Part shown: piece after piece, positions 4,714 to 56,788 of the stretch
How positions within the stretch are numbered: position 1 is the first letter of the stretch
Layout: each line of letters starts with the position of its first letter
NCBI GenBank assembly: GCA_030447505.1
Contig: JAUJOT010000003.1
Location: 62,001-126,000 of the forward strand
From: Solirubrobacteraceae bacterium
Lineage (GTDB): Bacteria; Actinomycetota; Thermoleophilia; Solirubrobacterales; Solirubrobacteraceae
Length of the DNA: 64,000 bases
Direction of reading: 5' to 3'
Translations under genes and position numbers: made by a program
The notes under the pieces: generated by a model
The model's database searches: none
The model's input: the letters and a program-made list of their open reading frames with translations, nothing else
Told to the model about the DNA's origin: nothing

Positions 4714-5805
4714 TCAGCCTCGCGACGAGCGGACCGCGGCCGCCTCGATCTTCTCCAGCCACTGTGCGACGGCGTCCTCGCCGAGCAGGTCTGCGGTCAG
4801 CCGGGCGGGCAGCTTGAGGAACATCCGCTGCGCCTGCCACTGTCGGCTGTAGGAGGCCGGACCGAGCAGGATCACGCGGTGGCCGTCGAGCACCGGGATG
4901 TCGGCCGGCATGCCCTCGTTCCAGATCCACGTATGGCTGAGCGACATGTCGGCCGGATCGGGCAGCTCGCCGCCGGGTTGCAGCGCCTCGAACGTGAAGA
5001 GGTTCCAGCCGCCCGTCACGGTCTCGTCGATCTGCTGCGGCCCCTCGCCCCGCGCGACCGCGACGGCCGCCTTCGAGACGCGCGGCTCGTCGCGCGGGAA
5101 CTCGTCCATCAGCAGGGTGTTGAGTTGGAAGTTCTCGACGATCCCGCTCATCCGACCGATGATCCCGCTGCGCGTCGCCGGCTCGATCGCGACGTACGGC
5201 TCGTCGTGCAGCACGCTCAGCATCGCGCGCAGCCAGCCGGCCGCCTCGTGGACGTCCTCGATCCGTTCGGCGATCGGCGCGAGCTCCTGCGCCTCGGCGC
5301 GCGCCTCGGGATCGACGGAGAACAGCGCGATCGCACCCGGCCAGACCTCGTGCAGGCGCTGCCATGCCGTCGCCGCGGCCGGCCTGCGCCCAGCGGCCTC
5401 GTTCAGCGCCTGCGCCCCGCGCTCGGCGAGCCACTCCTCGGCCTCGTCCTCGTCGAGCTGCTCGGGCGGCTCGCCGACCTCCGCGCGCGCCTCGTCGGCG
5501 ATGTCGGCGCAGACGGGCAGCGTCTGCTGCAGCGCGCCGAGCATCGCGGCGCGCGCCGGCCGCGGGTCCTGACCGGCCTCGATCATCGCGCCGACGACGC
5601 GCGAGGCGACGCCGGCCGGCTCGGGATCGAGCGAGTTCAGGCCGGAGGCGAGCGTCGCCATCGCCTGGCGCGACTCGGCCGGCGACGCGCGGCCGATCGA
5701 CGGCCCGAGCGTCTGGATGAGGCGGTCGGCGCGACCGTCGGTCCAGGTGTTGCTGCCGAGCGCGTCGAGCAGCTCACGGGCGGTGGAGACGATCTCGGTG
5801 GCCAC
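4714..5805 (-). CDS. Hypothetical protein
   Basis: Long ORF with coherent composition; start chosen at the GTG lying 7 nt after TACTGT. Confidence 0.65.
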   Translation of the reverse strand: MATEIVSTARELLDALGSNTWTDGRADRLIQTLGPSIGRASPAESRQAMATLASGLNSLDPEPAGVASRVVGAMIEAGQDPRPARAAMLGALQQTLPVCADIADEARAEVGEPPEQLDEDEAEEWLAERGAQALNEAAGRRPAAATAWQRLHEVWPGAIALFSVDPEARAEAQELAPIAERIEDVHEAAGWLRAMLSVLHDEPYVAIEPATRSGIIGRMSGIVENFQLNTLLMDEFPRDEPRVSKAAVAVARGEGPQQIDETVTGGWNLFTFEALQPGGELPDPADMSLSHTWIWNEGMPADIPVLDGHRVILLGPASYSRQWQAQRMFLKLPARLTADLLGEDAVAQWLEKIEAAAVRSSRG

Positions 5806-5957
5806 GCCCAGCACAGTAGTCGGTTCTCCGCGTCATGCTCACGCGTCGAACGGCAGCGCTGCGGTGTGGCGGCTGCGCACGTCAGGCCGCGCGTCGGCGA
5901 CGCGGCGGACCAGGAAACGGGCTCAGGCACCGCTGTAGCCTTCGGCTCTTGCAGCTG

Positions 5958-7304
5958 ATGCCGCTACGTCTTGCGTACGGCTTATCCGCTGCAGCTGCTG
6001 CGACGGTCGTCATCGTCGCGTCGACGCCGAGTCGACCGCCGACCTATGACACGCGTTGGCAGCTGTTGTGGGGCGAGCAGATCGCCGGCGCGGACATCCC
6101 CGAGTACGCGACGGGGCCTACCGCTCATCCGCTGATCATCGCGCTCGGCGCGATCTTCTCGATCGTGCAGCGTCTGACGGGGCTCGGCGACCGTCTCGCC
6201 GACGACGCGATCAGAGCGCTGACCGTCTTCGCATTCCTTGCTGCAGCGCTCGCGATCGGCTTGCTCACGTCGCGTATCGCCGGCGCCCTCGCGGGAGCGG
6301 TGACCGCTGCGATCGTGCTGACCCGTCCCTTCCTCGTCGAGTCCGCAGTGGTGGCCGTCTTTGACGTCGTCTTCGTAGCGATCGTCGCGTGGGCGGTGCT
6401 CGCGACGTACGAGCGGCGCTGGACCGCGGCGCTCGTTCTGCTGCTCGCTGCGGGACTGGTCCGCCCGGAGGCCTGGCTGTTCAGTCTCGTCGTCGCTGCG
6501 GTGATGCTGCGGTCTGGCGAGCCGGTCCGCGCGCCCGCGGCGGCGCTCGCGGTCGCCGCGCCGGTGCTGTGGGTCCTACTCGACTTCGCCGTGACGGGTG
6601 ACCCGCTGCACTCGTTCACCGCCACTCGCAACGCTGCTGCCGAGCTCGGCCGAGACCGAGGACCGCTCGACGCCGTGCTGCTCGCCCCAGTGCGCGTCGG
6701 TCAGGTCGTGGGACGCGAGATCGCGCTGCTGCTGCTCGTCGGGCTTGCCCTTGCCGTCTTCCGCCGGCCGGTCTCGATGCGCACCCGGCAGGCGATATCG
6801 GCCTTCGTCGTATCGGTGCTCGCGTACTTCCTCGTCAACGCCTGGGGGACGTCGATCCTCGCCCGGTACCTCTTGGCGCCGGCGCTGCTTGGCCTGCCAC
6901 TGATCGGGCTGATGCTCGGGCGCGTTCTCCCCGATCGAGCGATGCGCCGGGGGCCCGAGCAGTACCTTGCCGCGGCGCTGCTGCTGGGGCTCAGCGTGAC
7001 GCTCGGCGCACGCGCCGCGTCCTTGCGCCACATCTCCGACGCCGGCCGCGCCGAGGCGCGCCAGGCGGCCGCCCTGCATCTGGCGATCGACCGCCTGAGC
7101 GGCTGCCGGTCGGTATCGACGAACGACTTCTTCGTCGTCGTCGACGTCGCGCGCCGGCTCGACCTCAGTCCGGCGCAGGTGCGGCTCGTCGAGGCGAACG
7201 GCGGCGAGACCAGACCGGCCGTGACGGCACTGGCAGGTGACGGATCGGGGCGACGCGAGCGGATCGGGTCGATCGCCGTCTCCGGAGCCTGCACTCCACG
7301 CTGA
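5958..7304 (+). CDS. Polytopic membrane protein, glycosyltransferase-like
   Basis: Multiple hydrophobic segments and N-terminal W-LLWGEQIAGADIPEY region; no exact family recognised. Confidence 0.6.
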   Translation: MPLRLAYGLSAAAAATVVIVASTPSRPPTYDTRWQLLWGEQIAGADIPEYATGPTAHPLIIALGAIFSIVQRLTGLGDRLADDAIRALTVFAFLAAALAIGLLTSRIAGALAGAVTAAIVLTRPFLVESAVVAVFDVVFVAIVAWAVLATYERRWTAALVLLLAAGLVRPEAWLFSLVVAAVMLRSGEPVRAPAAALAVAAPVLWVLLDFAVTGDPLHSFTATRNAAAELGRDRGPLDAVLLAPVRVGQVVGREIALLLLVGLALAVFRRPVSMRTRQAISAFVVSVLAYFLVNAWGTSILARYLLAPALLGLPLIGLMLGRVLPDRAMRRGPEQYLAAALLLGLSVTLGARAASLRHISDAGRAEARQAAALHLAIDRLSGCRSVSTNDFFVVVDVARRLDLSPAQVRLVEANGGETRPAVTALAGDGSGRRERIGSIAVSGACTPR

Positions 7305-7322
7305 GTCGAGATCGGACTGCGC

Positions 7323-8651
7323 CTACGGCAGCTTCTTGCCGGGGTTCAGCAGCCCCTTCGGATCGAGGGCATGCTTGATCGCGCGCTGCGCCGCGACGGC
7401 GGCGGGTGCCCACTGCCGTGTCAGCTGGCCGCGCTTGAGCACGCCGATCCCGTGCTCGCCGCTGACCGTGCCGCCCAGTCGCAGGGCGAGCTCGAAGAGC
7501 TCCTGCGCGGCCTCGCCGGCGCGGCCCCGCTGGGCCTCGTCGGCGGGGTCGAGCAGAAAGGTCGCGTGCAGGTTCCCGTCCCCCGCGTGTCCCCACGAGC
7601 ACGCCTCGAGGTCGTGGCGCGCGCCGATCTGCACGGTCTGCGCGATCGCCTCCTCGAGCCGATCGACGGGCACGCCGATGTCCTCCGACAGCTTCGCCCC
7701 GCGCGCCGCGGCGACCGCGAGCGAGACGCCGTCACGCCAGCGCCAGACGGCGCGCGCGACGTCGTCGGGTGCGTGCACCGCCGCGGCGCCCGGCGCCAGT
7801 GCCTCGCGCAGCTCGTCGCGCACGCGCGCGGCCTCCGCGCTGGCACCGTCGGCCTCCGCGATCACGACGAAGCCGCGCAGCGCGCCGAGCGGGAACGCCG
7901 CGCCTGCGGCACGCATCGCGCCCTCGTCGAAGAACTCGAGTGCCGCGGGAAGCGAGCCGCTTTCGAGCACGCGCAGGATCGCAGCGCAGCCGGCGGCGGC
8001 GCCGGGGTAGGCGGCGACGACGGGCAACTGCGCCTCGGGCGCGGGCGTCAGCCGCAGCCAGGCCGCGGTGACGATCCCGAGCGTTCCCTCCGAGCCGGTC
8101 AGCAGCGCGCGCACGTCATAGCCCGCGACGTCCTTGCGCAGCGGGCCGCCGACGCGCACGAGCTCGCCCGGCGCGAGCACGGCCTCGATCCCGGTCACCC
8201 AGTCGCCGGTCGCGCCGTACTTGAAGGCGTGCGGCCCGCCGGCGTTCGTCGCGATCGTGCCGCCGAGCTGCGACTGCTCGGGTGCGCCGGGATCGGGCGG
8301 GAAGCTGAGGCCGTTCTCGCGCGCGAGCCGCGCGATCGTGGCGGTCGTGACGCCGGCCTCGGCCTCCATGCGCCAGAGCTGGGGCTCGAAGGAGCGGACG
8401 GCGGTCAGGCGTCCGAGCGACACCGCCACCGCGCCGGCCTGCAGGACCGCGGCGCCGCCGGCGAGGCCGCTGCGCCCGCCGACCGGAACGAGCGCGACGT
8501 CGTTGGCGTAGCACCACGCCACGACCGCGGCGACCTCGCTGGCGCTCGCGGGGCGCACGAGGGTCGCGCGAACGCCGGGGACGGCGATGTCGCCGACGAC
8601 CGTGTCGTGCTCGACGTGTGCGGCGCCGACGATGCGCTCGAGCTCGTGCAT
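7323..8651 (-). CDS. FAD-binding oxidase, glycolate/D-lactate dehydrogenase GlcD-like
   Basis: VPVGGRSGLAGGAAVLQ, GTIATNAGGPHAFKYGATGDWVTG, SGEHGIGVLKR, LDPKGLLNPGK. Confidence 0.9.
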   Translation of the reverse strand: MHELERIVGAAHVEHDTVVGDIAVPGVRATLVRPASASEVAAVVAWCYANDVALVPVGGRSGLAGGAAVLQAGAVAVSLGRLTAVRSFEPQLWRMEAEAGVTTATIARLARENGLSFPPDPGAPEQSQLGGTIATNAGGPHAFKYGATGDWVTGIEAVLAPGELVRVGGPLRKDVAGYDVRALLTGSEGTLGIVTAAWLRLTPAPEAQLPVVAAYPGAAAGCAAILRVLESGSLPAALEFFDEGAMRAAGAAFPLGALRGFVVIAEADGASAEAARVRDELREALAPGAAAVHAPDDVARAVWRWRDGVSLAVAAARGAKLSEDIGVPVDRLEEAIAQTVQIGARHDLEACSWGHAGDGNLHATFLLDPADEAQRGRAGEAAQELFELALRLGGTVSGEHGIGVLKRGQLTRQWAPAAVAAQRAIKHALDPKGLLNPGKKLP

Positions 8652-8788
8652 GGCGTGCGCGGATGGTGACCGCAATCGAGCCCTACCGCGAGCTGCGGAT
8701 CTCTCAGCCGCCGCGGCAAGTGTTCGTGTTCCCGCTGCAAACGCGCGGCCCGCGCTCGGTGCGCTGCAGGCTCCCTAGTCTGGGAGAC

Positions 8789-9562
8789 ATGCCCGAGGGC
8801 GACACGATCCACTACGCGGCGCGGCGCATCCGCTCGCTCGTCGACGGTCGGGTCCCGGAGATCGCGCACCCCCACCCGCGCCTGCGCGGTGAGCGCTGGC
8901 CCGAGAAGCTCGTGGGGCGCGCCGTGACCCGCGTCGACGCCCACGGCAAGCACCTCTTCGTGCACTTCGAGGGCGAGCTCGCGATCCACTCGCACCTGCG
9001 CATGAGCGGGTCCTGGGGCACCTACCGGCCCGGTCAGCGCTGGCGCCGGGCGCAGCACCGGGCCTGGCTCGTGCTGCGCAGCGACGAGGGCGAGGTGGTC
9101 CAGTTCGACGGGCCGGTCCTCGAGCTGCTGACCGAGTCGCGCACGCGCTTGGAGCGCCGCCTGTCGATGCTCGGACCCGACATCCTCGCCGCCGAGCTCG
9201 ACGAGCCCGCGATCATCGCGCGGCTGCGCGCAGACGACCAGACGCGCCCGATCGGCGACGCCCTGCTCGACCAGCGCACGATCGCGGGGATCGGCAACCT
9301 CTGGAAGTGCGAGGGCTGCTTCGCGGCGGCGATCGACCCGTGGCGGCCGACCGGCCGCGTCAGCGACGACGAGGCGCTGGCGATCATCCGCGCCGCGCGA
9401 GCCCGGATGCAGCAGTCGGCGCTGGACGGGATGCAGGACGCACATCGCGTCATCCATGCCGGGGCCGGGCGCCCGTGCCCGCGCTGCGGCGCCCCGATCC
9501 GCAGCCGCGGGCAGGGCGACGACAACCGCATCACCTACTGGTGCGCCGGGTGCCAGCGGTGA
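8789..9562 (+). CDS. nei: Endonuclease VIII / Fpg-Nei family DNA glycosylase
   Basis: MPEGDTIHYAARRI N-terminus, H2TH region, C-terminal zinc finger CPRCGAPIRSRGQGDDNRITYWCAGCQ. Confidence 0.9.
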   Translation: MPEGDTIHYAARRIRSLVDGRVPEIAHPHPRLRGERWPEKLVGRAVTRVDAHGKHLFVHFEGELAIHSHLRMSGSWGTYRPGQRWRRAQHRAWLVLRSDEGEVVQFDGPVLELLTESRTRLERRLSMLGPDILAAELDEPAIIARLRADDQTRPIGDALLDQRTIAGIGNLWKCEGCFAAAIDPWRPTGRVSDDEALAIIRAARARMQQSALDGMQDAHRVIHAGAGRPCPRCGAPIRSRGQGDDNRITYWCAGCQR

Positions 9563-10290
9563 CGCGTCGGCCGCGCGAGCGCAAGGCGCTGCGCCGCGTG
9601 GGCCACAAGGGCGCGGGCCACATCGCGCCTGGCAACACCTTCGGGTCCTTTGCGGCGGCGCTCGAGGGCGGCGTCGACATGATCGAGTTCGACATCCTCC
9701 CCGAGCACGCCGACGGAACCGGCGATCTGCTGCTCGCGCACGACTGGGAGGACGCCGCCGGACGCACGCCGCACACGCTCGACGAGGGCCTCGCGCACTT
9801 CACCGACGCCGCCTACGACGGCGTCGAGCTGCTGCTCGACCTCAAGACGGGCGGCTACGAGGAACGCGTCGTCGCCGCGCTGCACGAGCACCGCCTCTGC
9901 GATCGCGTGCTGATCTCGACGACGGAGGACGCGTCGCTCGAGCTCCTGCGCCGCCGCCATCCGCAGATCGCGCTCAGCTGGTCGTTGCCGCGGCTGCGCC
10001 GCAACCCGCTGCGTAACCCGTTCACGGTGCTGCCCGCCGTCGCCGTGCTGACGTACGTGCGCAGCGCGCTTCCCGGCGTCGCCGCGAACCGCATCCGCCG
10101 CGGCGAGATCGACGCGCTGACGGTGCACTGGCGGCTCATCACCGCGCGCCTGGCGGAAGCGATCGGGCGCGCCGGCGGCGAGCTCTACGCGTGGACGGTC
10201 GACGACCTCGAGCGGATCGAGAGCCTCGAGCTGATGGGCGTGACGGGCGTCATCTCCAACGACCCGGGCCTGTTCACTGGCCCGGCGTGA
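9559..10290 (+). CDS. Glycerophosphodiester phosphodiesterase
   Basis: GTGA overlap with nei; GHKGAGHIAPGNTFGSFAAALEGGVDMIEFDI ... WTVDDLERIESLELMGVTGVISNDPGL. Confidence 0.85.
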   Translation: MTRRPRERKALRRVGHKGAGHIAPGNTFGSFAAALEGGVDMIEFDILPEHADGTGDLLLAHDWEDAAGRTPHTLDEGLAHFTDAAYDGVELLLDLKTGGYEERVVAALHEHRLCDRVLISTTEDASLELLRRRHPQIALSWSLPRLRRNPLRNPFTVLPAVAVLTYVRSALPGVAANRIRRGEIDALTVHWRLITARLAEAIGRAGGELYAWTVDDLERIESLELMGVTGVISNDPGLFTGPA

Positions 10291-10780
10291 TCGTGCAGGT
10301 CGACGCCGAGTAGCCGGTCGGGTCGGCGCCCGCGTTGGAGCGGTGCCCCTTGCGCGTGCGCGCGCTCGCGCGCCGCAGGACACTGCCGCCCGCGCTACGC
10401 CACTGAAAGTAGACGCGGCCGCGCAGCAGCACCGGCTGGCGGGCGCTCGGCTCGATCCGCAGCGAACGGCCGAACTGCCGCGGCCGGCGGCCCTTGCCGA
10501 CGCGCAGGAACCCCGAATCGCCGCCCTCGAGGCGGTACCAGCGATCGTCGACCTTCGAGTGGTACTCGACGACGAATCGCATCCAGCGCACCTGCGCGCC
10601 GCTCCTCGAGCCCGGCATCGAGGCGCGGATCCCGATCGTGTTCGGAGCGCCGGCGGTGTCGCAGACGTTGACGGTCGCCCACACCCGCCGGCTGTCGTCG
10701 GAGCCCTGCGCGGCGGCGATCGGTCCCGCGAGCAGCACGAACAGCGTGATGATCCGAGCGCGGCGGCGTAGTACTCGCAT
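10274..10780 (-). CDS. Hypothetical secreted protein
   Basis: N-terminal signal peptide RRRARIITLFVLLAGPIAAAQG; no family recognised. Confidence 0.6.
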   Translation of the reverse strand: MRVLRRRARIITLFVLLAGPIAAAQGSDDSRRVWATVNVCDTAGAPNTIGIRASMPGSRSGAQVRWMRFVVEYHSKVDDRWYRLEGGDSGFLRVGKGRRPRQFGRSLRIEPSARQPVLLRGRVYFQWRSAGGSVLRRASARTRKGHRSNAGADPTGYSASTCTITPGQ

Positions 10781-10796
10781 GAGCGGCGCTGTGACC

Positions 10797-11309
10797 ATGG
10801 CAACCCCTCTCAACACGTCAAGCGCGAGCTTCGATGCGCTGTACCGCGACAGCGCACGCGACCTGTACGCCTACGTGCGCACGCTGCTCGGCGACGACGC
10901 GGCCGCCGAGGACGTCACGGCGCTCGCGTTCGAGCGCGCCTACCGGCGCCGTTCGAGCTTCGATGCGGGCCGCGGCAGCCAGCGCGGCTGGCTGTTCGGC
11001 ATCGCGAGAAACGCGGCGCTGGACGAGCTGCGCCGCCGCAAGCGCGCTGCGCCGCTCGTCGGCGAGCTGCCTGACGAGGGTGCGCCGGCACCCGAGGAGG
11101 AGGCCGACCTCGCGGTGCGCCGGACCACCGTCCGCGCCGCGCTCGCGGCGCTCGCGCCCCGCGACCGTGAGCTCGTCGCGCTGAAGTTCCACGGCGGGCT
11201 GACGAACGCCGAGCTCGCCGCCGTGCTGGGCACAAGCGAATCCAACGCCGGAACCCGAGTGCATCGGGCCGTCGCGAAGCTGAGGGAGGCCTGCAATGCG
11301 CCCGCGTGA
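10797..11309 (+). CDS. ECF-type RNA polymerase sigma factor
   Basis: FDALYRDSARDLYAYVRTLLGDDAAAEDVTALAFERAYRR ... GWLFGIARNAALDELRRRKR ... LAPRDRELVALKFHGGLTNAELAAVLG. Confidence 0.9.
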   Translation: MATPLNTSSASFDALYRDSARDLYAYVRTLLGDDAAAEDVTALAFERAYRRRSSFDAGRGSQRGWLFGIARNAALDELRRRKRAAPLVGELPDEGAPAPEEEADLAVRRTTVRAALAALAPRDRELVALKFHGGLTNAELAAVLGTSESNAGTRVHRAVAKLREACNAPA

Positions 11310-12390
11310 GACGTTGACCCCGGAGCAGGAGCGCGACCTCGAGGCGATCGACGGCGCGCTCGCCGGCGCTGCAGTCGAGTCGCAGCTGCGCGATCTCGAG
11401 GAGCTCGTGCTCGACGTGCGCGCCACCGCGCCGCAGATGAGCCCCGGCTTCGCCGCGCGCCTGGAGCACGAGCTGAGCGAGGGCTTCCCTGCGCCGCGCG
11501 AGCAGCCGTCGCGCGTGCGCCGGCCCGGCCGGCGCTGGCTGCTGCTGCCGGCCGTCGGCTCGCTCGCGGCGGTCGTCGTCGCGCTCGTGGTCGTGTTCGG
11601 CGACGGCGGCGATCAGCGGCCGCTCGGCGCTCGAGCCGAGCCTGCGCCGACCGCATCCTCGGCCGCCCGCGCGAGATCCACGCCGTCGGTCGACCTGAAT
11701 CGGTCGCAGCGAAAGGTCGAGCACAGCGCCTCGCTCGCGCTGCAGGCGCCCGAGGGCGGATTCGACAGCGCGACCGACGCGGTCAACGCGACCGTCGCTC
11801 GCTTCGGGGGGATCGTCGCCAGCGCGCAGATCGGTGCGAGCGACGCCGACGGCGGCGAGGCGACGTATGACCTGCGGATCCCGAGCGATCGCCTGAACCG
11901 CGCGCTCGCCGCACTGGCGCAGCTCGGCCACGTAACCGAGCGCAGCCAGAGCCTCGAGGACATCACGGGCTCGTTCGGCTCCGCGCAGGAGCGCCTGACC
12001 GACGCGCGCGCCGAGCGCCGCGGCCTGCTGCGCGCGCTCGAGCGCGCAACGACGCAGGCGCAGATCGACAGCCTGAAGGCGCAGCTGCGCGGCGTCGGCG
12101 GCCGGATCGGCAGGCTGAAGGGGCAGCTCGCATCGCTGCGCCGGCGCGCCGACCTGGCGACCGTCGGCCTCACGATCCGCAGCACCGGCGAGGCCGGCGA
12201 GACCGGTGGCGGAGCCTGGACGCCCGGCGACGCGGCGGGCGACGCGGTCCGCGTGCTCGAGGTCCTGGCGGGTGTCCTGCTGATCGCCCTCGCGCTGCTC
12301 GTGCCGGCCGGCCTGATCGTCGCCCTGATCGCGCTCGCCGTCCGCTTCGGCCGCCGCCGGCGCCGCGAAGCAGCGCTCGATCCGGCCTGA
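11296..12390 (+). CDS. Membrane protein with DUF4349-like domain; candidate anti-sigma partner
   Basis: 14-nt overlap with the sigma gene; cytosolic N-terminus, TM, RSQRKVEHSASLALQAP...YDLRIPSDRLNRALAALAQLGHVTERSQSLEDIT, C-terminal TM. Confidence 0.75.
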   Translation: MRPRETLTPEQERDLEAIDGALAGAAVESQLRDLEELVLDVRATAPQMSPGFAARLEHELSEGFPAPREQPSRVRRPGRRWLLLPAVGSLAAVVVALVVVFGDGGDQRPLGARAEPAPTASSAARARSTPSVDLNRSQRKVEHSASLALQAPEGGFDSATDAVNATVARFGGIVASAQIGASDADGGEATYDLRIPSDRLNRALAALAQLGHVTERSQSLEDITGSFGSAQERLTDARAERRGLLRALERATTQAQIDSLKAQLRGVGGRIGRLKGQLASLRRRADLATVGLTIRSTGEAGETGGGAWTPGDAAGDAVRVLEVLAGVLLIALALLVPAGLIVALIALAVRFGRRRRREAALDPA

Positions 12391-12480
12391 CGGCAGGCGG
12401 CGCCTCGCGCGGATCCCCGCCGCGCGAGCCGCCGCCGCGCCGGCGCTCGCGCCCCGCTGATCGCTCGCACTCGAGGCTTG

Positions 12481-12496
12481 TGTGCTATTGCTCACA
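12481..12496. promoter_or_regulatory. CRP/FNR-like palindrome TGTGC-TATTGC-TCACA just upstream of the crp-like ATG
   Basis: TGTG-N8-CACA dyad, 9/10 match to TGTGA-N6-TCACA. Confidence 0.6.
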
Positions 12497-12499
12497 CGA

Positions 12500-13195: not shown

Positions 13196-13623
13196 TGGCG
13201 GTGACCGAGTTCTCCGCCGGCGGCGTGGTCGTCAACGGCGATCGGGAGATCGTCGTCATCGTGCCGACGCGCCGCGCGGCCGACGGGTCGCGGGTGCTCG
13301 CGCTGCCGAAGGGCCATCCCGACGGATCGGAGTCCTCCGCCGAGGCGGCGCTGCGCGAGGTGCGCGAGGAGGCCGGCGTCGAGGCCGAGATCGTCGGCCC
13401 GCTGGGCGAGGTGCGCTACTGGTATCAGCGCGGTGGCAGGCGGATCGCGAAGGTCGTCGAGTTCTTTCTGCTGCGCTACGTCTCGGGCGACGTCGGCGAC
13501 CACGATCACGAGGTCGAGCACGCCCGTTGGGTGCCGGCCGCGGAGGCCGTCAAGACGCTCACGTACGCCGGCGAGCGCGACATGGTGCGCGAGGCGCTGT
13601 CGCGCATCGAGCGTGGCTTGTAG
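13195..13623 (+). CDS. NUDIX hydrolase
   Basis: ATG overlaps stop of the crp-like gene; GHPDGSESSAEAALREVREEAGVEAEI matches Nudix box. Confidence 0.85.
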   Translation: MAVTEFSAGGVVVNGDREIVVIVPTRRAADGSRVLALPKGHPDGSESSAEAALREVREEAGVEAEIVGPLGEVRYWYQRGGRRIAKVVEFFLLRYVSGDVGDHDHEVEHARWVPAAEAVKTLTYAGERDMVREALSRIERGL

Positions 13624-13634
13624 TCTGCCCGGCT

Positions 13635-14033
13635 GTGCAGGTGCTCAACTTCTACTCGACGATCTTCGCCGACCAGCTCAAGCGCGGGCGCAAGACCGCC
13701 ACGATCCGCCTCGGCGACAAGTCGCACAAGTACCGCAAGAACCAGGCCGTGCTCGTGACGATCGGCTACCAGCACTCGCCCCGCGAGAAGGTCTTCATGG
13801 CGGTGATCGACAGCGTCGAGGTCAAGCGCGTCAAGGAGCTCTCGCCGCGCGACATCGAGCACGACAACCCCGAGTTCCGGCGCACCGAGGAGATGATCCA
13901 CTTCCTCGAGCAGATCTACGGCCGTGACGTCGGCGTCGAGGACACGGTCACGGTCGTGCGCTTCAGCCAGATCATCGAGAACCCACCCTCGATGACCGAG
14001 CGGCTGCACGGCATCGGCGGGGCGCAGAACTAG
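13635..14033 (+). CDS. ASCH-domain-like protein
   Basis: [42 protein letters not shown]. Confidence 0.6.
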
Positions 14034-14114
14034 CGGCTCGGCTCGCGGGGCAGCCCCACCGGCGCTCGCCGAACGCGTGCGAGACGACCGCGTCGCCGAG
14101 ACGTGAAGAACCTG

Positions 14115-14141
14115 TTGGCACTCCTTCACCACGAGTGCCAA
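14115..14141. promoter_or_regulatory. CIRCE element 1 (HrcA operator)
   Basis: TTGGCACTC-N9-GAGTGCCAA perfect inverted repeat upstream of groES. Confidence 0.93.
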
Positions 14142-20034: not shown

Positions 20035-20098
20035 GGCTGGATACTATGTCCGCCCGGCCGGACCCCTGACACCACGCAAGCGAAGGAACGAACTCTTC

Positions 20099-22188: not shown

Positions 22189-22315
22189 GCGATCCAGTCT
22201 AGGAAAACGCGGTCGTGCTGCCGCGGGGCGCTTGAAGCGCGCCGTCTGACGCGATCTCCGTCACCGGATGCGCCGCTGCGTCGAGCTCGCGGCCCGACGC
22301 GCCGGCGCTGACGCG

Positions 22316-24294: not shown

Positions 24295-24312
24295 CGCAGG
24301 CATACTAGGCCG

Positions 24313-28363: not shown

Positions 28364-28388
28364 CCGATTCACGGTACATCATGGGCAT

Positions 28389-30413: not shown

Positions 30414-30775
30414 CCGGGGACGAGCAGGTCGACGGCGACGACGACGAGCAGCGCGGCGAAGATCAGCGAGATCGCCTTCGTCGAGATGCGCTGCTGCAGC
30501 TCGGTCCCGACCAGGACGCCCGCAACCGCCGGCACGCCGATCAGGATGCCCTCCTGCAGGTGGACGTTGCCGTAGACGCCGTGCGCCGCCGCTGCGACCG
30601 CCGCGATCACGACGATCGCCGCAAGCGAGGTCCCGCTCGCCAGACGCTCGCCGAAGCCGCACCACAGCACGAGCAGCGGCACGATCAGAATCCCGCCGCC
30701 GACGCCGAACAGCCCGCTCAACAAGCCCGCGCCGGTGCCGATCGCCGCCAGCGTGAGCGTTCGGCGCGGTGGCAT
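30410..30775 (-). CDS. Half-size TauE/SafE (TSUP) membrane protein, copy 1
   Basis: GAGLLSGLFGVGGGILIVPLLVLWCGF; about 122 aa. Confidence 0.85.
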   Translation of the reverse strand: MPPRRTLTLAAIGTGAGLLSGLFGVGGGILIVPLLVLWCGFGERLASGTSLAAIVVIAAVAAAAHGVYGNVHLQEGILIGVPAVAGVLVGTELQQRISTKAISLIFAALLVVVAVDLLVPG

Positions 30776-30794
30776 GCGCGCCATACTAAAAGCC

Positions 30795-40745: not shown

Positions 40746-40769
40746 CGCGAGCAGTGTAGGTACAACGCG

Positions 40770-44167: not shown

Positions 44168-44210
44168 TCCTCGATGCTTCCGGTCGGGTCCGGGTCGCTA
44201 ACCTCACGAT

Positions 44211-45611: not shown

Positions 45612-45704
45612 GCGTGCGCGCGCCGCTCGACGACGGCGAGCCTCGACGCGTGTCATGTCGAGCGAACGGCGATCCCAGCGCGCGGCGGACTCTACGATTC
45701 CGCC

Positions 45705-47653: not shown

Positions 47654-47694
47654 GGCGCAGACCCTAGCGGCGGCAGCTCAGAGCGACGTAAGAG

Positions 47695-49020: not shown

Positions 49021-49140
49021 CTTGCCGCCCTTCGCAGTCGCGCTTCATCGGCCGTCAACGCTATCGACCCGCAGCAGCCGGCGCAGTCGAGCGCGCAGAC
49101 GGCGATTTCGCCGTCGGCTCGCCGCAGGCGGCGAGCTCGC

Positions 49141-51042
49141 TCAGCGCCCGTCGGCGGCGGCCTGCGCCGCGAAGCGCCCGCCGACGACCTCGACGGACGG
49201 CTTGGCGTCGTTGCGGACATCGAACAGGCCCTTCTGGTTCAGCCCGCGGACGAGCTTGATGTCGGGGACCTGGGTCTTGATCGAGCCGCCGTAGAAGGTC
49301 GGCGCGACCGCGAAGTCGCGCAGGTTCCAGACCAGCGCGCCGGCGAGGTTGGGGATCGAGCCGTACGTCGCAAGGTGCAGGTCGAGCAGGTGCGACTGGA
49401 ACGCGTAGCCGCCCGGCCTGGTCGTCGCGTTGCGGCCGTTGGCCTCGGCACCGAACTCCGTCACCGCGATCACCTTGTCGGGGAAGACCGCCCGCAGCTT
49501 CGCCAAGCGCGTGCGGATCATCTTGCGCAGCTCGGATTGCGGCGCGTGCGTCGCCTCGTACCAGCCGATGTAGTTCGTCCAGCCGATCATGTCGATGTTG
49601 TTGTAGATCCGCGAGTTCCTGCGCGGCGGATGCGCGCCCCAGATGTCGAGCGCGACGGGTCGGCTGGGGTCGATCTCGTGAAGCTCCTGCGCCATCGAGT
49701 CGACGTACGGGATCTGGCCCTTCGGATGACCGCCGCCGGCGACCTCGTTGGCGAGGTTCCAGGTGATGATCGACGGGTGCAGCTGGGTCTGGCGGAACGT
49801 CCTGCGCACGCGGTCCTTGGCGATCCTGATTCGCCGCGCGCCGCGCGACGTCCACGCGCCCGGAGCATCCGTCGGGCCGATCCCCTGCCAGATCATGATC
49901 CCGGCGGCGTCGAGCCGCTCGAGCAGGCCGGGATCGAGTGGGTGCTGGCTGCGGGTCGCGTTGGCGCCGATCGTCTTGAGCTGCTCGACGATGCGATCCT
50001 GGTCGGCCGGCTGCAGCCCGTCGCCGCGGCCGAAGACATCCTCGTGGATCGAGGCGCCGCGCAGCCGCAACGGCGCGCCGTTGAGCAGCAGCCGGCTGCC
50101 CTCGGCCCTGACCTCGCGCAGCCCGACGCGGGCGCGGTACGTCGCCTCGCCGGGCACCTCGAGCGCGAGCTCCCAGAGCCTCGGCGACGCCGGTGACCAC
50201 AGGTCGGGATCGTCGACGCGCACCGACGTCTGCAGGACCTCGGTTCCCTCCTTCGCGACGGGCTCGGCCGGGAACTCGAACTCGACCTTCCTGTCGCCGC
50301 GGCTGAGGGTGCCCTTCACCGCAAGCGGGCGCGGCGCGCCGTTGTTGTGGACGTGGACGGCCATGTCGACGAGCGCCGAACCGCCCTGCAGCCGCGTGCG
50401 CAGCGTCGGATACAGCAGCTCGCTGGGGCCGATCCGGCGGATGCTGACCCCCCGGTTGATGCCGCCGAAGTTGAACCACAGGCGGTGCCAGCCGTCGCGC
50501 TTCATGGCGGTCGGCCCGCGATAGTCGGCGCGCACGACGAGCTTGTGGCGCGCTCCGGCCTTCAGGAAGGTCTTCACCTCGAAGGGCAGGTACTCGCCGG
50601 TATGCTTGGCGACGCGCTTGCCGTCGATGAAGACCTGCGCCTTGTGGTTGACGGACTCGAAGCGAATCGCGTAGGTGCCGTCGACGGGGACGTCGATCTT
50701 CGTCCGGTACCACGCGACGGTGCCGCGGAAGACGGCGATCCCGCGGCGGCCGCTGATCTTCGTCGCGTCGGGCACGTAGGGGACGCGCACGAGCTCGCCG
50801 TCGAAGGTGCCCGCCTGGAAGCCCTTGTCCAGGCCGACGTCCTGGCGGTCGCGCCGAAAGCGCCACCGGCCGTCGAGCTGGGCGCGGTCGCCGGGGCCGG
50901 CGTAGATCGTCGGGGGGGCGCCGTGCGGGGCGAGCACGACCGGCGTCGTCGTCGCCTCTGACTCGGCCGAGGAGACCATCACGAGGACGCCGGCGAGCAC
51001 GGCGAGGAGCGCACACACTCCACCGATCACGGCCCGCATCAT
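49141..51042 (-). CDS. Glycoside hydrolase family 2 protein with N-terminal membrane signal
   Basis: GH2 sandwich/TIM-barrel architecture; NLANEVAGGG and VIAVTEFGAEA active-site-like motifs. Confidence 0.85.
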   Translation of the reverse strand: MMRAVIGGVCALLAVLAGVLVMVSSAESEATTTPVVLAPHGAPPTIYAGPGDRAQLDGRWRFRRDRQDVGLDKGFQAGTFDGELVRVPYVPDATKISGRRGIAVFRGTVAWYRTKIDVPVDGTYAIRFESVNHKAQVFIDGKRVAKHTGEYLPFEVKTFLKAGARHKLVVRADYRGPTAMKRDGWHRLWFNFGGINRGVSIRRIGPSELLYPTLRTRLQGGSALVDMAVHVHNNGAPRPLAVKGTLSRGDRKVEFEFPAEPVAKEGTEVLQTSVRVDDPDLWSPASPRLWELALEVPGEATYRARVGLREVRAEGSRLLLNGAPLRLRGASIHEDVFGRGDGLQPADQDRIVEQLKTIGANATRSQHPLDPGLLERLDAAGIMIWQGIGPTDAPGAWTSRGARRIRIAKDRVRRTFRQTQLHPSIITWNLANEVAGGGHPKGQIPYVDSMAQELHEIDPSRPVALDIWGAHPPRRNSRIYNNIDMIGWTNYIGWYEATHAPQSELRKMIRTRLAKLRAVFPDKVIAVTEFGAEANGRNATTRPGGYAFQSHLLDLHLATYGSIPNLAGALVWNLRDFAVAPTFYGGSIKTQVPDIKLVRGLNQKGLFDVRNDAKPSVEVVGGRFAAQAAADGR

Positions 51043-51228
51043 CAGCCTCGCCACCTGCTCCCGTTCATCGTGTCTCCTCGAGCTCCCTGCGGCCGCATCG
51101 CACGCCACGTAGCGCGGCGCGCGCGGACAACCTGCCACTCCCCCAAACCAGGTGGCGGGCAGAATGTAGCGTTCCCGACCGCGTCACACCCCACCCGAAC
51201 GGCGGTGATCGACGCACGAGCGCTTCAA

Positions 51229-51807
51229 ATGGGCCGCGAATACGACACCATCGACGAGCATCTTGCCGGCTGGATCGCGCGCCAGCCGCTGTTCTTCGTG
51301 GGCAGCGCGCCGCTGGCCGAGGACGGCCACGTCAACATCTCGCCGAAGGGCCCGATCGGGTCGCTGCGCGTGCTGGGGCCGACGACGGTCGCGTACCTCG
51401 ACATCTACGGCAGCGGAGCGGAGACGATCGCGCACATCCGCGAGAACGGGCGAATCGTCGTGATGTTGTGCGCCTTCTCCGGGCCGCCGCGGATCGTGCG
51501 GCTGCACGGGCGCGGGGAGCTGCTGCGACCGGGCGATGACGGCTTCGAGGCGCTGCTCGCAGAGGCGGCGTTCGAGGACCCGGCGATTGCCGAGGCGCGG
51601 CGCGCGATCGTGCGCGTCGACGTGTCGCGGATCGCCGACTCGTGCGGCTACGGCGTGCCGCTGATGGCCTACGAGGGCGAGCGGCCGCACAGCACGCTGT
51701 CGGCGCAGAAGCGCCTGCGCACGCAGGGGCGCGACGGCTACGCGAAGTTCGTCGCCGAGCGCAACGCGAGCAGCGTCGACGGGCTGCCGGCGATCGACGC
51801 TTCGTAG
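51229..51807 (+). CDS. Pyridoxamine 5'-phosphate oxidase-family protein
   Basis: QPLFFVGSAPLAEDGHVNISPKGP ... AYLDIYGSGAETIAHIRENGRIVVML. Confidence 0.85.
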   Translation: MGREYDTIDEHLAGWIARQPLFFVGSAPLAEDGHVNISPKGPIGSLRVLGPTTVAYLDIYGSGAETIAHIRENGRIVVMLCAFSGPPRIVRLHGRGELLRPGDDGFEALLAEAAFEDPAIAEARRAIVRVDVSRIADSCGYGVPLMAYEGERPHSTLSAQKRLRTQGRDGYAKFVAERNASSVDGLPAIDAS

Positions 51808-51811
51808 GTGG

Positions 51812-52321
51812 TCAGCGCAGCCGCAGGCGATCGCCGGGCTGCAGCGACTTCGGCTTGAGCTTCGGGTTGAGCCGCCGCAGCCGCGTGATCGACTTGCCCG
51901 TCTTCGCCGCGATCGAGCCGAACGAGTCGCCCGTGCGCACGGTCGCGTACTTCGGCCCGAGCGGCTTGGGCTTGGGCTTGGGGACGTTCTTGCGCAGCTT
52001 CAGGCGCTGGCCCGGCTGGATCGCCGACGGGTCGACGTCGGGGTTGAACGTCTCGAGCTCGTCGACGGTCAGCCCGGTCTTCTGCGCGATGCGGACGTAC
52101 GTGTCGCCGCGCCGCACCTTCCAGTAGACCGGCAGGTCGCGCCGCTCCGCGCGCTGTTCGCTCGCCGCGCTCGCGGCCTCGTCGTCCGCGCCGGAGCTGA
52201 CGGCGACGACGACGATCGCGAGGAAGAGCAGTGCGAGGCCACCGAAGATCAGGTACGCGCGCAAGCGACGGTCGTCGTCGACGCCGCTGCTCCCGGCAGG
52301 TGCTCCGGCTGGCCCTGACAT
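51812..52321 (-). CDS. TM protein with two LysM domains
   Basis: YWKVRRGDTYVRIAQKTGLTVDELETFNPDVDPSAIQPGQRLKL and TVRTGDSFGSIAAKTGKSITRLRRLNPKLKPKSLQPGDRLRL. Confidence 0.9.
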   Translation of the reverse strand: MSGPAGAPAGSSGVDDDRRLRAYLIFGGLALLFLAIVVVAVSSGADDEAASAASEQRAERRDLPVYWKVRRGDTYVRIAQKTGLTVDELETFNPDVDPSAIQPGQRLKLRKNVPKPKPKPLGPKYATVRTGDSFGSIAAKTGKSITRLRRLNPKLKPKSLQPGDRLRLR

Positions 52322-52387
52322 GTTCGTCCGTTGCGGCGCGTTTTCCCCGCTCGCAGCGCATCTAACTGTGCAAGTGTTTAGTTCGTG

Positions 52388-53899
52388 TTAATCGATTGCG
52401 ATCGCGACGTACTTCGTCTCGAGGAACTCCGCGATGCCCTCGGGCCCGCCCTCGCGGCCGATCCCCGAGTGCTTGATCCCGCCGAAGGGCGCGCCCGCGT
52501 TCGAGACGAGGCCCTGGTTGAGGCCGACCATCCCGGTCTCGATCCGCTCGCTGACGCGCAGCGCCCGCTTGACGTCGGCGGTGTAGAGGTAGGCGACGAG
52601 CCCGAACTCGGTGTCGTTGGCGGCCGCGAGCGCCTCGTCCTCGGACGCGAACGCCGCGACCGGCGCGACCGGGCCGAAGATCTCCTCCTTGAGCAGGCGC
52701 GCGTCGTCGGGGACGTCGGCGAGCACCGTCGGCTTGTAGAAGTGGCCCGGTCCGTCGACGCGCTCGCCGCCGCACAGCACGCGCGCGCCCTTGGCGACCG
52801 CGTCGTCGACGAGCTCGGCGACCTTCTCGAGCTGATCTTCGTCGATCAGCGGCCCGACCTCGACGCCGTCGTCCGTGCCGCGGCCGATCTTCAGCGCGCC
52901 CATCTTCTCCGCGAGCCTGTCGGCGAACTCGGCGGCGATCGGCTGCGCGACGTGGAAGCGGTTGGCGGCCGTGCAGGCCTCACCGACGTTGCGCATCTTG
53001 GCGACCATCGCGCCATGCACCGCGTCGTCGACGTCGGCGTCCTCGAAGACGACGAACGGCGCGTTGCCGCCGAGCTCCATCGACACGCGCAGGATCTGGT
53101 CGGCGGCGTGCGCCATCAGCCTGCGGCCGACGCGGGTCGAGCCGGTGAACGACAGCTTGCGCGTGCGCGGGTCGCGGATGACGGGCTCCATGACCGATCC
53201 CGACGAGCGCGTCGTGATGACGTTCAGCACGCCGCCCGGCAGGCCCGCCTGCTCGAGGATCTTCGCCAGCATCAGCGTCGACAGCGGCGCGAGCTTCGCG
53301 GGCTTGACGACGATCGTGCAGCCGGCCGCGATCGCGGGGCCGATCTTGCGCGTGCCCATCGCGAGCGGGAAGTTCCAGGGGGTGATGAAGACGCACGGGC
53401 CGACGGGCTGCTTCATCGTCAGCAGGCGGCCGCCGCCGGCCTCGTGCATCGTGAAGCGGCCGTCGAGCCGGACGGCCTCCTCGGCGTACCAGCGCAGAAA
53501 GCTCGCGCCGTAGGTGACCTCGGCCTTGGACTCGGCCAGCGGCTTGCCCATCTCGAGCGTCATCAGCAGCGCGAGGTCGTCGGCGCGCTCGACGATCGCC
53601 TCGTAGGCGCGGCGCAGGATGTCCGAGCGCTCGCGCGGCGGGCTGTCGCGCCAGCCGCCGTACCACGCGTCGTGCGCGGCGCCGAGCGCGGCGAGCGCAT
53701 CGTCGGGCGTCGCGTCGGCCACCTCGGCGATCGTCTCGCCCGTCGCCGGGTCGTCGACGGCGACGGTGTCGCCGCCTGCGCCGTCGCACCACTGTCCGGC
53801 GATGTAGAGCTGTGTCGGGACGGCGTCGAGCACGGCCTGCTCGCCGGCGGGGAGGGCGCTGCTGATGTGCGCGGCGTCTGACGCGGGCGAACCGGTCAT
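52388..53899 (-). CDS. Aldehyde dehydrogenase, succinate-semialdehyde dehydrogenase-like
   Basis: ITPWNFPLAMGTRKIGPAIAAGCTIVVKPA, SFTGSTRVGRRLM, MELGGNAPFVVFEDADVD, NRFHV. Confidence 0.93.
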   Translation of the reverse strand: MTGSPASDAAHISSALPAGEQAVLDAVPTQLYIAGQWCDGAGGDTVAVDDPATGETIAEVADATPDDALAALGAAHDAWYGGWRDSPPRERSDILRRAYEAIVERADDLALLMTLEMGKPLAESKAEVTYGASFLRWYAEEAVRLDGRFTMHEAGGGRLLTMKQPVGPCVFITPWNFPLAMGTRKIGPAIAAGCTIVVKPAKLAPLSTLMLAKILEQAGLPGGVLNVITTRSSGSVMEPVIRDPRTRKLSFTGSTRVGRRLMAHAADQILRVSMELGGNAPFVVFEDADVDDAVHGAMVAKMRNVGEACTAANRFHVAQPIAAEFADRLAEKMGALKIGRGTDDGVEVGPLIDEDQLEKVAELVDDAVAKGARVLCGGERVDGPGHFYKPTVLADVPDDARLLKEEIFGPVAPVAAFASEDEALAAANDTEFGLVAYLYTADVKRALRVSERIETGMVGLNQGLVSNAGAPFGGIKHSGIGREGGPEGIAEFLETKYVAIAID

Positions 53900-53999
53900 G
53901 CGTCTCGGAGGATCTGTCGCGGCTCGTTTCGCACGCATGCGACGTACCCATCAGTCCAGCCGCCGCAACTCGAAGCAGGCCGGCGTGTCCGGAGACGCG

Positions 54000-55433
54000 A
54001 TGAGGCACACCGCTCTCCTCGCCGCCCTGTTCGCGCTGTTCGCAGCCGCCCCGGTGCACGCCGCGTCGCGGCTCGTCGTCAAGGGCGCGGGCTTCGGCCA
54101 CGGTGTCGGCATGAGCCAGTACGGCGCGTACGGGTTCGCCGAGCGGGGCGCCGACCACGGCAGGATCCTGCGCCACTACTACAGCGGCACGCGGATCGGC
54201 ATGCTCGCCGGCGGCGGCGGCCAGGTCCGGGTGCTGCTGAAGACCGCCCGCCGGATCGTCTTCACGAACGCGGCGAGCGTCGCCGGATCCAGGCGCCTTG
54301 ATCCGGCGAAGCGCTACGTCGCGACACGCCGGCTGAGCGGCGCCATCACGCTGCGCAGCGCGAGCGGCCGCGACCTCGGCAGCTACGCGTCGCCGCTGAC
54401 GATCACGGGCGCGCGCGGCGGATTTCAGATCAACGGGCGCAGCGGGTTCGCCGCCGTCGACGGGCGCTACCGCGGCAACCTGCAGATCCGCGCCTCGGCG
54501 CTGGCCGGCGTGTCGGCGATCAACGCGCTCGGCCTCGACGACTACATCCGCGGCGTGGTCGCCGGCGAGATGCCCTCGGGCTGGCCGCAGGCGGCGCTGC
54601 GCGCGCAGGCCGTCGCCGCACGCACGTACGCGCTCGCGACGAGCAAGGAGGGTGACGGCTTCGACCAGTACGCCGACACGCGCTCGCAGGTCTACAACGG
54701 CATCGCCGGCGAGACGGCGCCGACCGACGAGGCGGTCGCCGCGACGGCCGGCGAGATCGTCACGTTCGAAGGAAGGCCGATCGTCACCTACTACTTCTCG
54801 ACGTCGGGCGGCCGCACCGAGGACGTCGAGAACTCCTTCCTCGGCGCCGAGCCCAAGCCCTACCTGCGCTCCGTCGAGGATCCGCACGACGACGCGTCGC
54901 CGCGGCATCGCTGGACGATCCAGATGAGCCTGCGCTCGGCGCAGCGGCGCCTCGGCGGGCTCGTCAAGGGGCGGCTCGTACGGATCAAGGTGCTCAGCCG
55001 CGGCAGGTCGCCGCGCGTCGTTCGCGCGCAGGTCGTCGGCACGCGCGGGCGCACGAGCGTCAGCGGCCCGACGCTGCGCAGCAGGCTCGGGCTGTACGAC
55101 ACGTGGGCGCGCTTCACGGTGATCACCGCGCGCGCCCGGCGCGGCGACGGCGATCGGCCGAGCAGCCCGGGGACGGCGACAGGCGGCGCGGCGCCGCGGC
55201 TCGCGCGCGCGTCGATGCTGCGCGTGCCCGTCGGCACGATCGCCGGGCGCGTGGACCCGGCGATCGCTCAACGAAGCTGGGTCTCGGTGCAGCGCTGGAA
55301 CGGCAGGCGCTGGATCGCGCGCTTCGACGTTGCGGTCAGCGTGGGCGGCCGCTACGCGGCGCCGCTGCGGACGTCTGGGCTCTACCGCGTGGTCTACCGC
55401 GACGTGGTGGGCCCAAGCGTGCTCGTGCGCTGA
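54000..55433 (+). CDS. SpoIID/LytB-domain secreted protein
   Basis: Signal peptide; GFGHGVGMSQYGAYGFAERGADHGRILRHYYSGTRIG; LDDYIRGVVAGEMPSGWPQAALRAQAVAARTYAL. Confidence 0.92.
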   Translation: MRHTALLAALFALFAAAPVHAASRLVVKGAGFGHGVGMSQYGAYGFAERGADHGRILRHYYSGTRIGMLAGGGGQVRVLLKTARRIVFTNAASVAGSRRLDPAKRYVATRRLSGAITLRSASGRDLGSYASPLTITGARGGFQINGRSGFAAVDGRYRGNLQIRASALAGVSAINALGLDDYIRGVVAGEMPSGWPQAALRAQAVAARTYALATSKEGDGFDQYADTRSQVYNGIAGETAPTDEAVAATAGEIVTFEGRPIVTYYFSTSGGRTEDVENSFLGAEPKPYLRSVEDPHDDASPRHRWTIQMSLRSAQRRLGGLVKGRLVRIKVLSRGRSPRVVRAQVVGTRGRTSVSGPTLRSRLGLYDTWARFTVITARARRGDGDRPSSPGTATGGAAPRLARASMLRVPVGTIAGRVDPAIAQRSWVSVQRWNGRRWIARFDVAVSVGGRYAAPLRTSGLYRVVYRDVVGPSVLVR

Positions 55434-55437
55434 ACGC

Positions 55438-55896
55438 TCAGCCCGCGCTGTACAGCCGCGTCAGCTGCTCGGCGACGCAGACGGCCTTGAGCGCGCCCTC
55501 ACCCTCGAACGTGAGCTTCATCGTGACCTGCGCACCGCCGACGACGTCCTCGACGTCGACCAGCGTGGCCCGCATGCGGACCCGATTTCCGACCGGCAGC
55601 GGGGCCGGGAAGCGGACCTTGTTGAGCCCGTAGTTGACCGCGAACGCGAAGCCCTCGAACGCCACGATCTGCGCGGCGAAGCGCGGGTGCAGCGAGAGCG
55701 TGTAGTAGCCGTGGGCGATCGTGCCGCCGAACGGCGTCTGCGTCGCACGCTGCGGATCGGTGTGGATCCACTGCTGGTCGCCGGTGACCTCGGCGAACGC
55801 GTCGATGTCCGCCTGCGCGACGTCGTGCCAGTCGCTGACGCCAAGCTCCTCGCCGACCTTCGCGCGCATCTCCTCGAGCCCGGTGATCGTGAGCAT
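55438..55896 (-). CDS. MaoC-family dehydratase
   Basis: VTGDQQWIHTDPQRATQTPFGGTIAHGYYTLSLHP. Confidence 0.92.
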   Translation of the reverse strand: MLTITGLEEMRAKVGEELGVSDWHDVAQADIDAFAEVTGDQQWIHTDPQRATQTPFGGTIAHGYYTLSLHPRFAAQIVAFEGFAFAVNYGLNKVRFPAPLPVGNRVRMRATLVDVEDVVGGAQVTMKLTFEGEGALKAVCVAEQLTRLYSAG

Positions 55897-56788
55897 CGCG
55901 CGGGAGCATAGCCTTACCCGGATCGCCTCCCCGCTGCTCGCCGTCGACGCCCCGTCGCTGCTGTACCGCGCGTTCTTCGCGCTGCCGCGGAGCATCACCG
56001 ACGGCGACGGACACGCCGTCAACGGCCTGCTGGGCATGGCCAACCTGATCCTCTTCGTCGTCGAGCGCCACGACCCGCGCGCCGTCGTGCTGTGCTGGGG
56101 CGCCGAGTCGGCGGCATACCGCAGCGAGCTCTTCGAGCCCTACCACGCCGACCGACCGCCGATGCCGCCCGAGCTCGAGCGCCAGTGGCGCGACGCGCCC
56201 CGGTTCTTCGCCGCGTTCGGATGGCAGAGCCTGTCGGCGGGCGATCTCGAGGCCGACGACCTGCTCGCCTCGCTCGCGCGCGTCGAGACCGAAGCGGGCG
56301 GCGAGGCGCTCCTGTTCACCGGCGACCGCGACATGTTCCAGTGCGTCGGCGACGGCGTGACCGTGCTGTTCCCGCGCGGCGGCAAGGACGGCCCCGAGGT
56401 CGTCGACGCCGCCGGCGTGCGCGAGCGCTACGGCATCGAGCCCGACCAGGTGCCGGACTTCATCGCCCTGCGTGGCGACCCGTCCGACGGCCTGCCGGGC
56501 GCCAAGGGGATCGGCGCGAAGACGGCGCGTGACCTGCTGCGCGAGCACGGGACGCTCGAGGGCGTCATCGCGGCTGCGTCCAAGCCGGGCACGATGACGC
56601 CGCGCCAGGCGGGCGCGCTGACCGGCGACCCGGCCGCGCTGCGCACGTTCAAGGACATCGCGACGCTGCGCCTGATCGAGCTCGAGCGACCGCCCGACGC
56701 GGCGCTGGAGGGCGCGCCCGCGGCGGCCGCCGCGCGCGAGCGCGGGATGAACCGGCTCGCGGAGCGGCTGGAAGACCTCGGCCGCTAG
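55889..56788 (+). CDS. Stand-alone 5'-3' exonuclease (PolA N-terminal domain-like)
   Basis: AVDAPSLLYRAFFALP, EADDLLASLARVE, LFTGDRDMFQCV, DFIALRGDPSDGLPGAKGIGAKTARDLL; start codon uncertain. Confidence 0.85.
   Translation: MSIAREHSLTRIASPLLAVDAPSLLYRAFFALPRSITDGDGHAVNGLLGMANLILFVVERHDPRAVVLCWGAESAAYRSELFEPYHADRPPMPPELERQWRDAPRFFAAFGWQSLSAGDLEADDLLASLARVETEAGGEALLFTGDRDMFQCVGDGVTVLFPRGGKDGPEVVDAAGVRERYGIEPDQVPDFIALRGDPSDGLPGAKGIGAKTARDLLREHGTLEGVIAAASKPGTMTPRQAGALTGDPAALRTFKDIATLRLIELERPPDAALEGAPAAAAARERGMNRLAERLEDLGR

What the first reader, a model, noticed from the sequence alone, without database searches (positions are those of the whole stretch)
5805..55910. Recurring TAnnnT (or CATACT) box exactly 6-8 nt before start codons: widespread leaderless transcription
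Read directly: TACTGT-N7-GTG (5805,-), TAGTCT-N7-ATG (8789,+), TAGTCT-N8-GTG (13635,+), TAGTAT-N6-GTG (20034,-), TAGACT-N7-ATG (22188,-), TAGTAT-N7-ATG (24294,-), CATACT-N6-GTG (24313,+), TACCGT-N7-ATG (28363,-), TAGTAT-N7-ATG (30775,-), CATACT-N7-ATG (30795,+), TACACT-N7-ATG (40745,- ileS), TAACCT-N6-GTG (44211,+), TACGAT-N6-GTG (45705,+), TAGGGT-N7-ATG (47653,- lepB), TATGCT-N8-ATG (55896,-). TAnnnT is the actinobacterial sigma-70 -10 consensus and transcription normally starts 6-8 nt downstream, so the start codon would be the 5' end of the mRNA. This also corrects several ORF starts (5814 to 5805, 24303 to 24294, 28372 to 28363, 30784 to 30775).
Basis: partly seen in the sequence, partly recalled or inferred. 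Interest (0 to 1): 0.72.

Follow-up and report, generated by a model that had tools for sequence, protein, structure and literature searches.

The report
Leaderless promoters, some shared two ways
In this actinobacterium about one gene in five has its promoter's -10 box placed so close to the start codon that the messenger RNA should begin at the start codon itself; that is a known actinobacterial habit, but several back-to-back gene pairs share a single symmetric box serving both start codons, and that arrangement is kept across much of the family and appears undescribed.

Summary
In detail: all 15 boxes lie exactly where stated. In 1.98 Mb of the same genome (Solirubrobacteraceae by closest named relatives), TANNNT peaks sharply 6-11 nt before start codons. 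At spacers 6-8 there are 220 boxes in 1,845 genes against about 12 expected. The lower edge is abrupt at 6, internal ATG/GTG codons show no peak, and boxed genes almost never carry a Shine-Dalgarno motif (4/401 against 277/1445 elsewhere). The leaderless reading is well supported by sequence; no transcription-start data exist here. It is not new: TANNNT about 12 bp upstream marks leaderless genes throughout Actinobacteria.

Its two TAGTAT/CATACT pairs (24294/24313, 30775/30795), plus a third (35667/35692), are divergent genes sharing one palindromic -10 box, start codons 19-25 nt apart, both genes predicted leaderless. This recurs in 15 of 258 divergent pairs (6 expected) and is conserved across the family with changing box sequence. 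In helicase/IMPase homologues the base completing the box on the opposite strand is A in 29/31 genomes where the box is shared and 3/17 where it is not. I found no description of leaderless genes on a shared bidirectional -10.

The parts
5813..5818 (-). TACTGT -10 box, N7 before GTG 5805; an in-box GTG (5814) is a false start
   Evidence: read directly; in-box codon
8776..8781 (+). TAGTCT -10 box, N7 before ATG 8789 (Fpg/Nei-type glycosylase, start fixed by MPEG)
13621..13626 (+). TAGTCT -10 box, N8 before GTG 13635 (ASCH domain protein)
20041..20046 (-). TAGTAT -10 box, N6 before GTG 20034 (NAD-binding epimerase-like)
22196..22201 (-). TAGACT -10 box, N7 before ATG 22188 (Mrp/NUBPL-type Fe-S ATPase)
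24301..24307 (.). shared CATACTA box: TAGTAT-N7-ATG 24294 (-, inositol monophosphatase family) and CATACT-N6-GTG 24313 (+, UvrD/PD-(D/E)XK helicase-nuclease); starts 19 nt apart
   Evidence: conserved in relatives
28371..28376 (-). TACCGT -10 box, N7 before ATG 28363 (PAC2 family); an in-box GTG (28372) is a false start
30782..30788 (.). shared CATACTA box: TAGTAT-N7-ATG 30775 (-, TauE/SafE half-size permease) and CATACT-N7-ATG 30795 (+, trehalose-phosphatase); starts 20 nt apart
   Evidence: conserved in relatives
   Evidence: conserved in relatives
40753..40758 (-). TACACT -10 box, N7 before ATG 40745 (IleS)
44199..44204 (+). TAACCT -10 box, N6 before GTG 44211 (HD domain protein)
45693..45698 (+). 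TACGAT box, N6 before GTG 45705; start uncertain (caller prefers 45720)
47661..47666 (-). TAGGGT -10 box, N7 before ATG 47653 (signal peptidase S26)
55905..55910 (-). TATGCT -10 box, N8 before ATG 55896 (MaoC-like)

Best explanation
The boxes are -10 elements of primary-sigma promoters without a recognisable -35, placed so that transcription starts at, or within about 5 nt of, the start codon. The mRNAs are leaderless and translation begins directly at a 5'-terminal ATG or GTG. About 18-22% of genes here use this layout. In a subset of divergent gene pairs one palindromic core (A-N3-T, often extended to YANNNTA) serves as the -10 element of both genes: polymerase can load in either orientation, the two transcription starts lie about 18-25 bp apart, and both messages are leaderless. 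Shown: positions, statistics, exclusion of Shine-Dalgarno motifs, conservation, and covariation of the opposite-strand base with sharing. Inferred: the transcription start sites, use of both strands, and leaderless translation.
For: Peak at spacers 6-11 with a hard lower edge and no peak at internal codons or with rearranged patterns; repeats in G014 and pooled relatives. SD motif in 4/401 boxed genes against 277/1445 others. Boxed genes are rare at overlapping codirectional junctions (2/325), where no own promoter is expected. Third base of the box is mostly G or C and the middle is free, as in other actinobacterial -10 boxes. Shared boxes: 15/258 own divergent pairs against 6.2 expected; with relatives 37/456 against 11.6; T...A, G...C and C...G palindromes not enriched. 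Three pairs keep a shared box in 26/29, 23/29 and 20/29 loci that keep the neighbour. Base after the box is A in 29/31 shared against 3/17 unshared helicase loci.
Against: No transcription-start or protein N-terminal data. A third of boxes sit at N9-11, which would give leaders of 3-5 nt if the start site is fixed. In the trehalose-phosphatase pair the plus-strand box has C or G, not T, at -12. In this genome alone the excess of shared boxes is modest (p about 0.002), and relatives are not independent samples.
Confidence: 0.88

Rival explanations
1. The boxes are real -10 elements, but the divergent pairs only look shared: one gene uses the box and the neighbour's start codon lies close by chance or compaction, with its own promoter inside the opposite gene.
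For: Genome-wide excess of shared boxes is only about 2.4-fold in this genome; some relatives with the neighbour kept have starts 40 nt or more apart and separate boxes.
Against: Both spacers stay at 6-10 across many genera while box letters change. The base serving only the opposite strand is A in 29/31 shared and 3/17 unshared loci, and is rare (1.7-5%) in ordinary leaderless boxes.
Confidence: 0.15
2. The boxes are -10 elements but mRNAs carry very short leaders of 1-6 nt, and a signal other than a 5'-terminal start codon is used.
For: 115 of 360 boxes lie at spacers 9-11, where ATG is favoured over GTG (GTG 20% against 42% at N6-7).
Against: The main mass is at N6-8, which fits a start site 6-7 nt after the box; no SD motif remains.
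Confidence: 0.2
3. Artefact: upstream in-frame stop codons (TAG/TAA), start mis-calling or base composition create an apparent TA...T signal.
For: TAG is a common beginning of the box, and at N6 TA. is in frame with the start.
Against: TAC and TAT boxes are common, the peak is as high at N7-8 as at N6, rearranged patterns and internal codons do not show it, and boxes are conserved across genera.
Confidence: 0.01
4. The boxes are binding sites of a regulator or a translation signal rather than promoter elements.
For: CATACTA is strikingly conserved upstream of trehalose-phosphatase.
Against: Genome-wide only TA...T is shared among boxes; CATACTA occurs twice in 1.98 Mb, both at divergent pairs, and is replaced by TATCCTA or TACGATA in relatives.
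Confidence: 0.03

Closest known systems
Leaderless genes of Actinobacteria with TANNNT about 12 bp upstream of the start (Zheng 2011 PMC3160421; Cortes 2013 PMC3898074; Shell 2015 PMC4633059)
   Same: Same box, same distance, similar share of genes (19% average in Actinobacteria; about a quarter in M. tuberculosis, no -35); ATG/GTG starts
   Different: A lineage (Solirubrobacterales) for which I found no study; tail of spacers to 11; no RNA data here
Bidirectional promoters with a symmetric -10 element (Warman and Grainger; PMC12825309, PMC10268837)
   Same: -11A and -7T of the two strands coincide; separations centred on 18 bp, with 10 and 23 also common
   Different: Here both products are predicted leaderless coding messages, the intergenic gap is only the box and spacers, and the arrangement is conserved across genera with covarying symmetry
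Leaderless -10 motif next to ORFs in Deinococcus-Thermus (PMC12340547)
   Same: TANNNT adjacent to ORFs, shown experimentally there to be a promoter
   Different: Different phylum; divergent or bidirectional use not mentioned
Juxtaposed divergent promoters in M. tuberculosis, e.g. prpD/Rv1129c (Cortes 2013)
   Same: Divergent neighbours both leaderless
   Different: A shared symmetric -10 box is not described in the passages read

Membership tests
Actinobacterial leaderless genes | TANNNT centred about 10 nt before the start codon, in excess over controls | tested here: met
Actinobacterial leaderless genes | No Shine-Dalgarno motif | tested here: met
   4/401 against 277/1445
Actinobacterial leaderless genes | ATG or GTG start, no conserved -35 | tested here: met
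   start codons; no -35 signal (TTG starts were excluded by design)
Actinobacterial leaderless genes | Mapped transcription start at the start codon | not testable with these tools
   needs dRNA-seq or Cappable-seq
Bidirectional (symmetric -10) promoters | -11A and -7T of the two strands reciprocally paired (palindromic ANNNT) | tested here: met
   three window pairs; conserved
Bidirectional (symmetric -10) promoters | Opposite transcription starts 7-25 bp apart, mostly 18 | tested here: inconclusive
   start codons are 18-27 nt apart at shared boxes; transcription itself not measured
Bidirectional (symmetric -10) promoters | Transcription on both strands from one element | not testable with these tools
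   needs RNA mapping or reporters

The most novel reading that the evidence does not exclude
In Solirubrobacterales a recurrent layout, the bidirectional leaderless promoter, pins two divergent start codons 18-25 nt apart around one 7 bp symmetric -10 box. Selection keeps the box symmetric where it is shared, and keeps ordinary leaderless boxes asymmetric (A after the box in 1.7% of codirectional cases against 8-11% expected), perhaps to suppress antisense transcription.
Probability: 0.55. Interest if true: 0.6.

Novelty: new variant of a known kind. Interest (0 to 1): 0.45.

Why it matters
Leaderless genes let a promoter be read from sequence alone, because the start codon marks the transcription start. 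Divergent leaderless pairs on one box therefore give a sequence-only record of promoter bidirectionality over long evolutionary times, which elsewhere needs RNA mapping. They make it testable whether promoter symmetry is selected for where two genes need it and against where antisense RNA would result. Practically, a share of annotated starts in this group will be 9 nt too long, because the box itself contains a start-like codon.

Tried and rejected
Stop-codon and base-composition artefact: rejected. A specific regulator site: rejected in general because only TA...T is common to the boxes; CATACTA occurs just twice in 1.98 Mb, both at divergent pairs. A -35 element: not found. Phylum-wide pattern scan CAY-N6-TANNNTA-N6-RTG against ATNNNAT: uninformative, because AT-richer genomes dominate and gene context is missing. 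The first gene caller over-extended starts into opposite genes and was replaced. In relatives pooled around ileS the depletion of A after the box seemed absent until shared pairs were separated by context. No tRNA or Rfam match in the window.

Full report
WHERE. The window is bases 62001-126000 of contig 10 of a 3.84 Mb, 13-contig genome. IleS relatives at 81-83% identity are Solirubrobacteraceae MAGs, so this is an actinobacterium of the class Thermoleophilia, 72% GC in the window.

CHECK. All 15 boxes are exactly as described. To test for chance I took 1.98 Mb of the same genome in stretches, called genes from codon statistics alone, and counted TANNNT by distance. The result is a sharp block at spacers 6-11, almost nothing at 0-5, and nothing at internal ATG/GTG codons. 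Rearranged patterns of equal composition do not show it. With a second, better gene caller the counts at spacers 3-12 are 6, 1, 1, 67, 98, 80, 59, 36, 20, 5 in 1,885 genes. Another genus of the family (G014: 22.6% of genes above background) and pooled relatives (20%) give the same picture; a small sample of other Actinomycetota loci gives 6%. Shine-Dalgarno-like motifs are found in 4 of 401 boxed genes and 277 of 1445 others. Boxed genes are rare where genes overlap in the same direction (2 of 325) and more common where there is room upstream. No -35 signal appears. This is what leaderless promoters should look like.

INDEPENDENT STARTS. The gene at 8789 encodes a Fpg/Nei-type glycosylase beginning MPEG. 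In that family the proline after Met removal is the catalytic residue (established knowledge), so the start is certain, and it lies 7 nt after the box. The TauE start at 30775 aligns with homologues from residue 1. The four start corrections make sense: the rejected upstream codon is inside the box (TANNRT followed by G), in frame 9 nt upstream; 19 of 123 N7 starts in the sampled genome carry this trap.

SHARED BOXES. The pairs 24294/24313 and 30775/30795 each lie around a single CATACTA. Reading A-N3-T palindromically, -11A and -7T of one strand pair with -7T and -11A of the other, the geometry described for bidirectional promoters with starts 18 bp apart (PMC10268837; PMC12825309). A third pair, 35667/35692, shares TAGGGTA. 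Genome-wide, 15 of 258 divergent pairs have a palindromic ANNNT with both spacers 6-10 (6.2 expected from other spacings, p 0.002); with relatives it is 37 of 456 against 11.6. The control palindromes T...A, G...C and C...G are not enriched, and divergent start-to-start distances peak at 20-27 nt.

CONSERVATION. In relatives down to about 48-60% protein identity the three divergent pairs keep a shared box in 26/29, 23/29 and 20/29 loci that keep the neighbour. Box letters change (CATACTA, TATCCTA, TACGATA, GATACTA) but the palindromic core and both spacers are kept. In L142, L143, L144 and L149 the start codons are exactly 18 nt apart. Where the helicase box is not shared, the helicase mostly still has a box 6-10 nt before its start, but the base after it, which supplies T-12 for the opposite strand, is A in only 3/17 loci against 29/31 in shared boxes. 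Over all three pairs, classed by whether the neighbour is kept, it is 82/95 against 7/19. The loci are related by descent, so the p values overstate the strength.

AN OPPOSITE TREND ELSEWHERE. In ordinary leaderless boxes A after the box is rare: own genome 12/435 against 7.9% after T upstream, G014 2/107 against 8.7%, all codirectional cases 6/343. This may be selection against two-way promoters, or simply a base preference of the polymerase next to the -10 element; these data cannot tell the two apart.

COMPARISON. The headline is known: Zheng 2011 reported TANNNT about 12 bp upstream and 19% leaderless genes on average in Actinobacteria, Cortes 2013 mapped it in M. tuberculosis, without a -35 and with juxtaposed divergent promoters noted as common, and Shell 2015 found a 5'-terminal ATG or GTG necessary and sufficient in mycobacteria. 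Bidirectional promoters are also known. The combination, two leaderless genes on one conserved symmetric box, was not found in nine searches of the open-access library. The original 2021 paper on bidirectional promoters is not held there, so prior mention cannot be excluded.

LIMITS. No RNA or protein data. Gene calls are my own, on half of the genome. The names PolX and glycosyltransferase for the third pair rest on sequence recall, not on a family search.

Noticed in passing
genome-wide, 1.98 Mb of G000 and 0.4 Mb of G014: The base after the TANNNT box is almost never A in ordinary leaderless genes (1.7% in codirectional context) although A follows T in 8-11% of upstream sequence; cause open.
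   Followed up: partly
genome-wide, spacers 6-11: GTG starts fall from 42% at N6-7 to 20% at N9-11, against 23% in genes with a Shine-Dalgarno motif: GTG may be tolerated best exactly at the 5' end.
   Followed up: no
window 5814, 24303, 28372, 30784: Start-like codons inside TANNRT+G boxes, in frame 9 nt upstream of the real start, are a systematic annotation trap: 19 of 123 N7 starts.
   Followed up: yes
window 28363(-)/28389(+): Divergent pair with two adjacent boxes (TACCGT minus, CATCAT-N6-ATG plus) rather than one shared box; possibly an intermediate layout.
   Followed up: no
L118, L162, L176, L138, L157: Public contigs titled Bifidobacterium breve, Chlamydiae or Microthrix carry IleS most like Solirubrobacterales or other actinobacteria: the record titles look mislabelled.
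   Followed up: no
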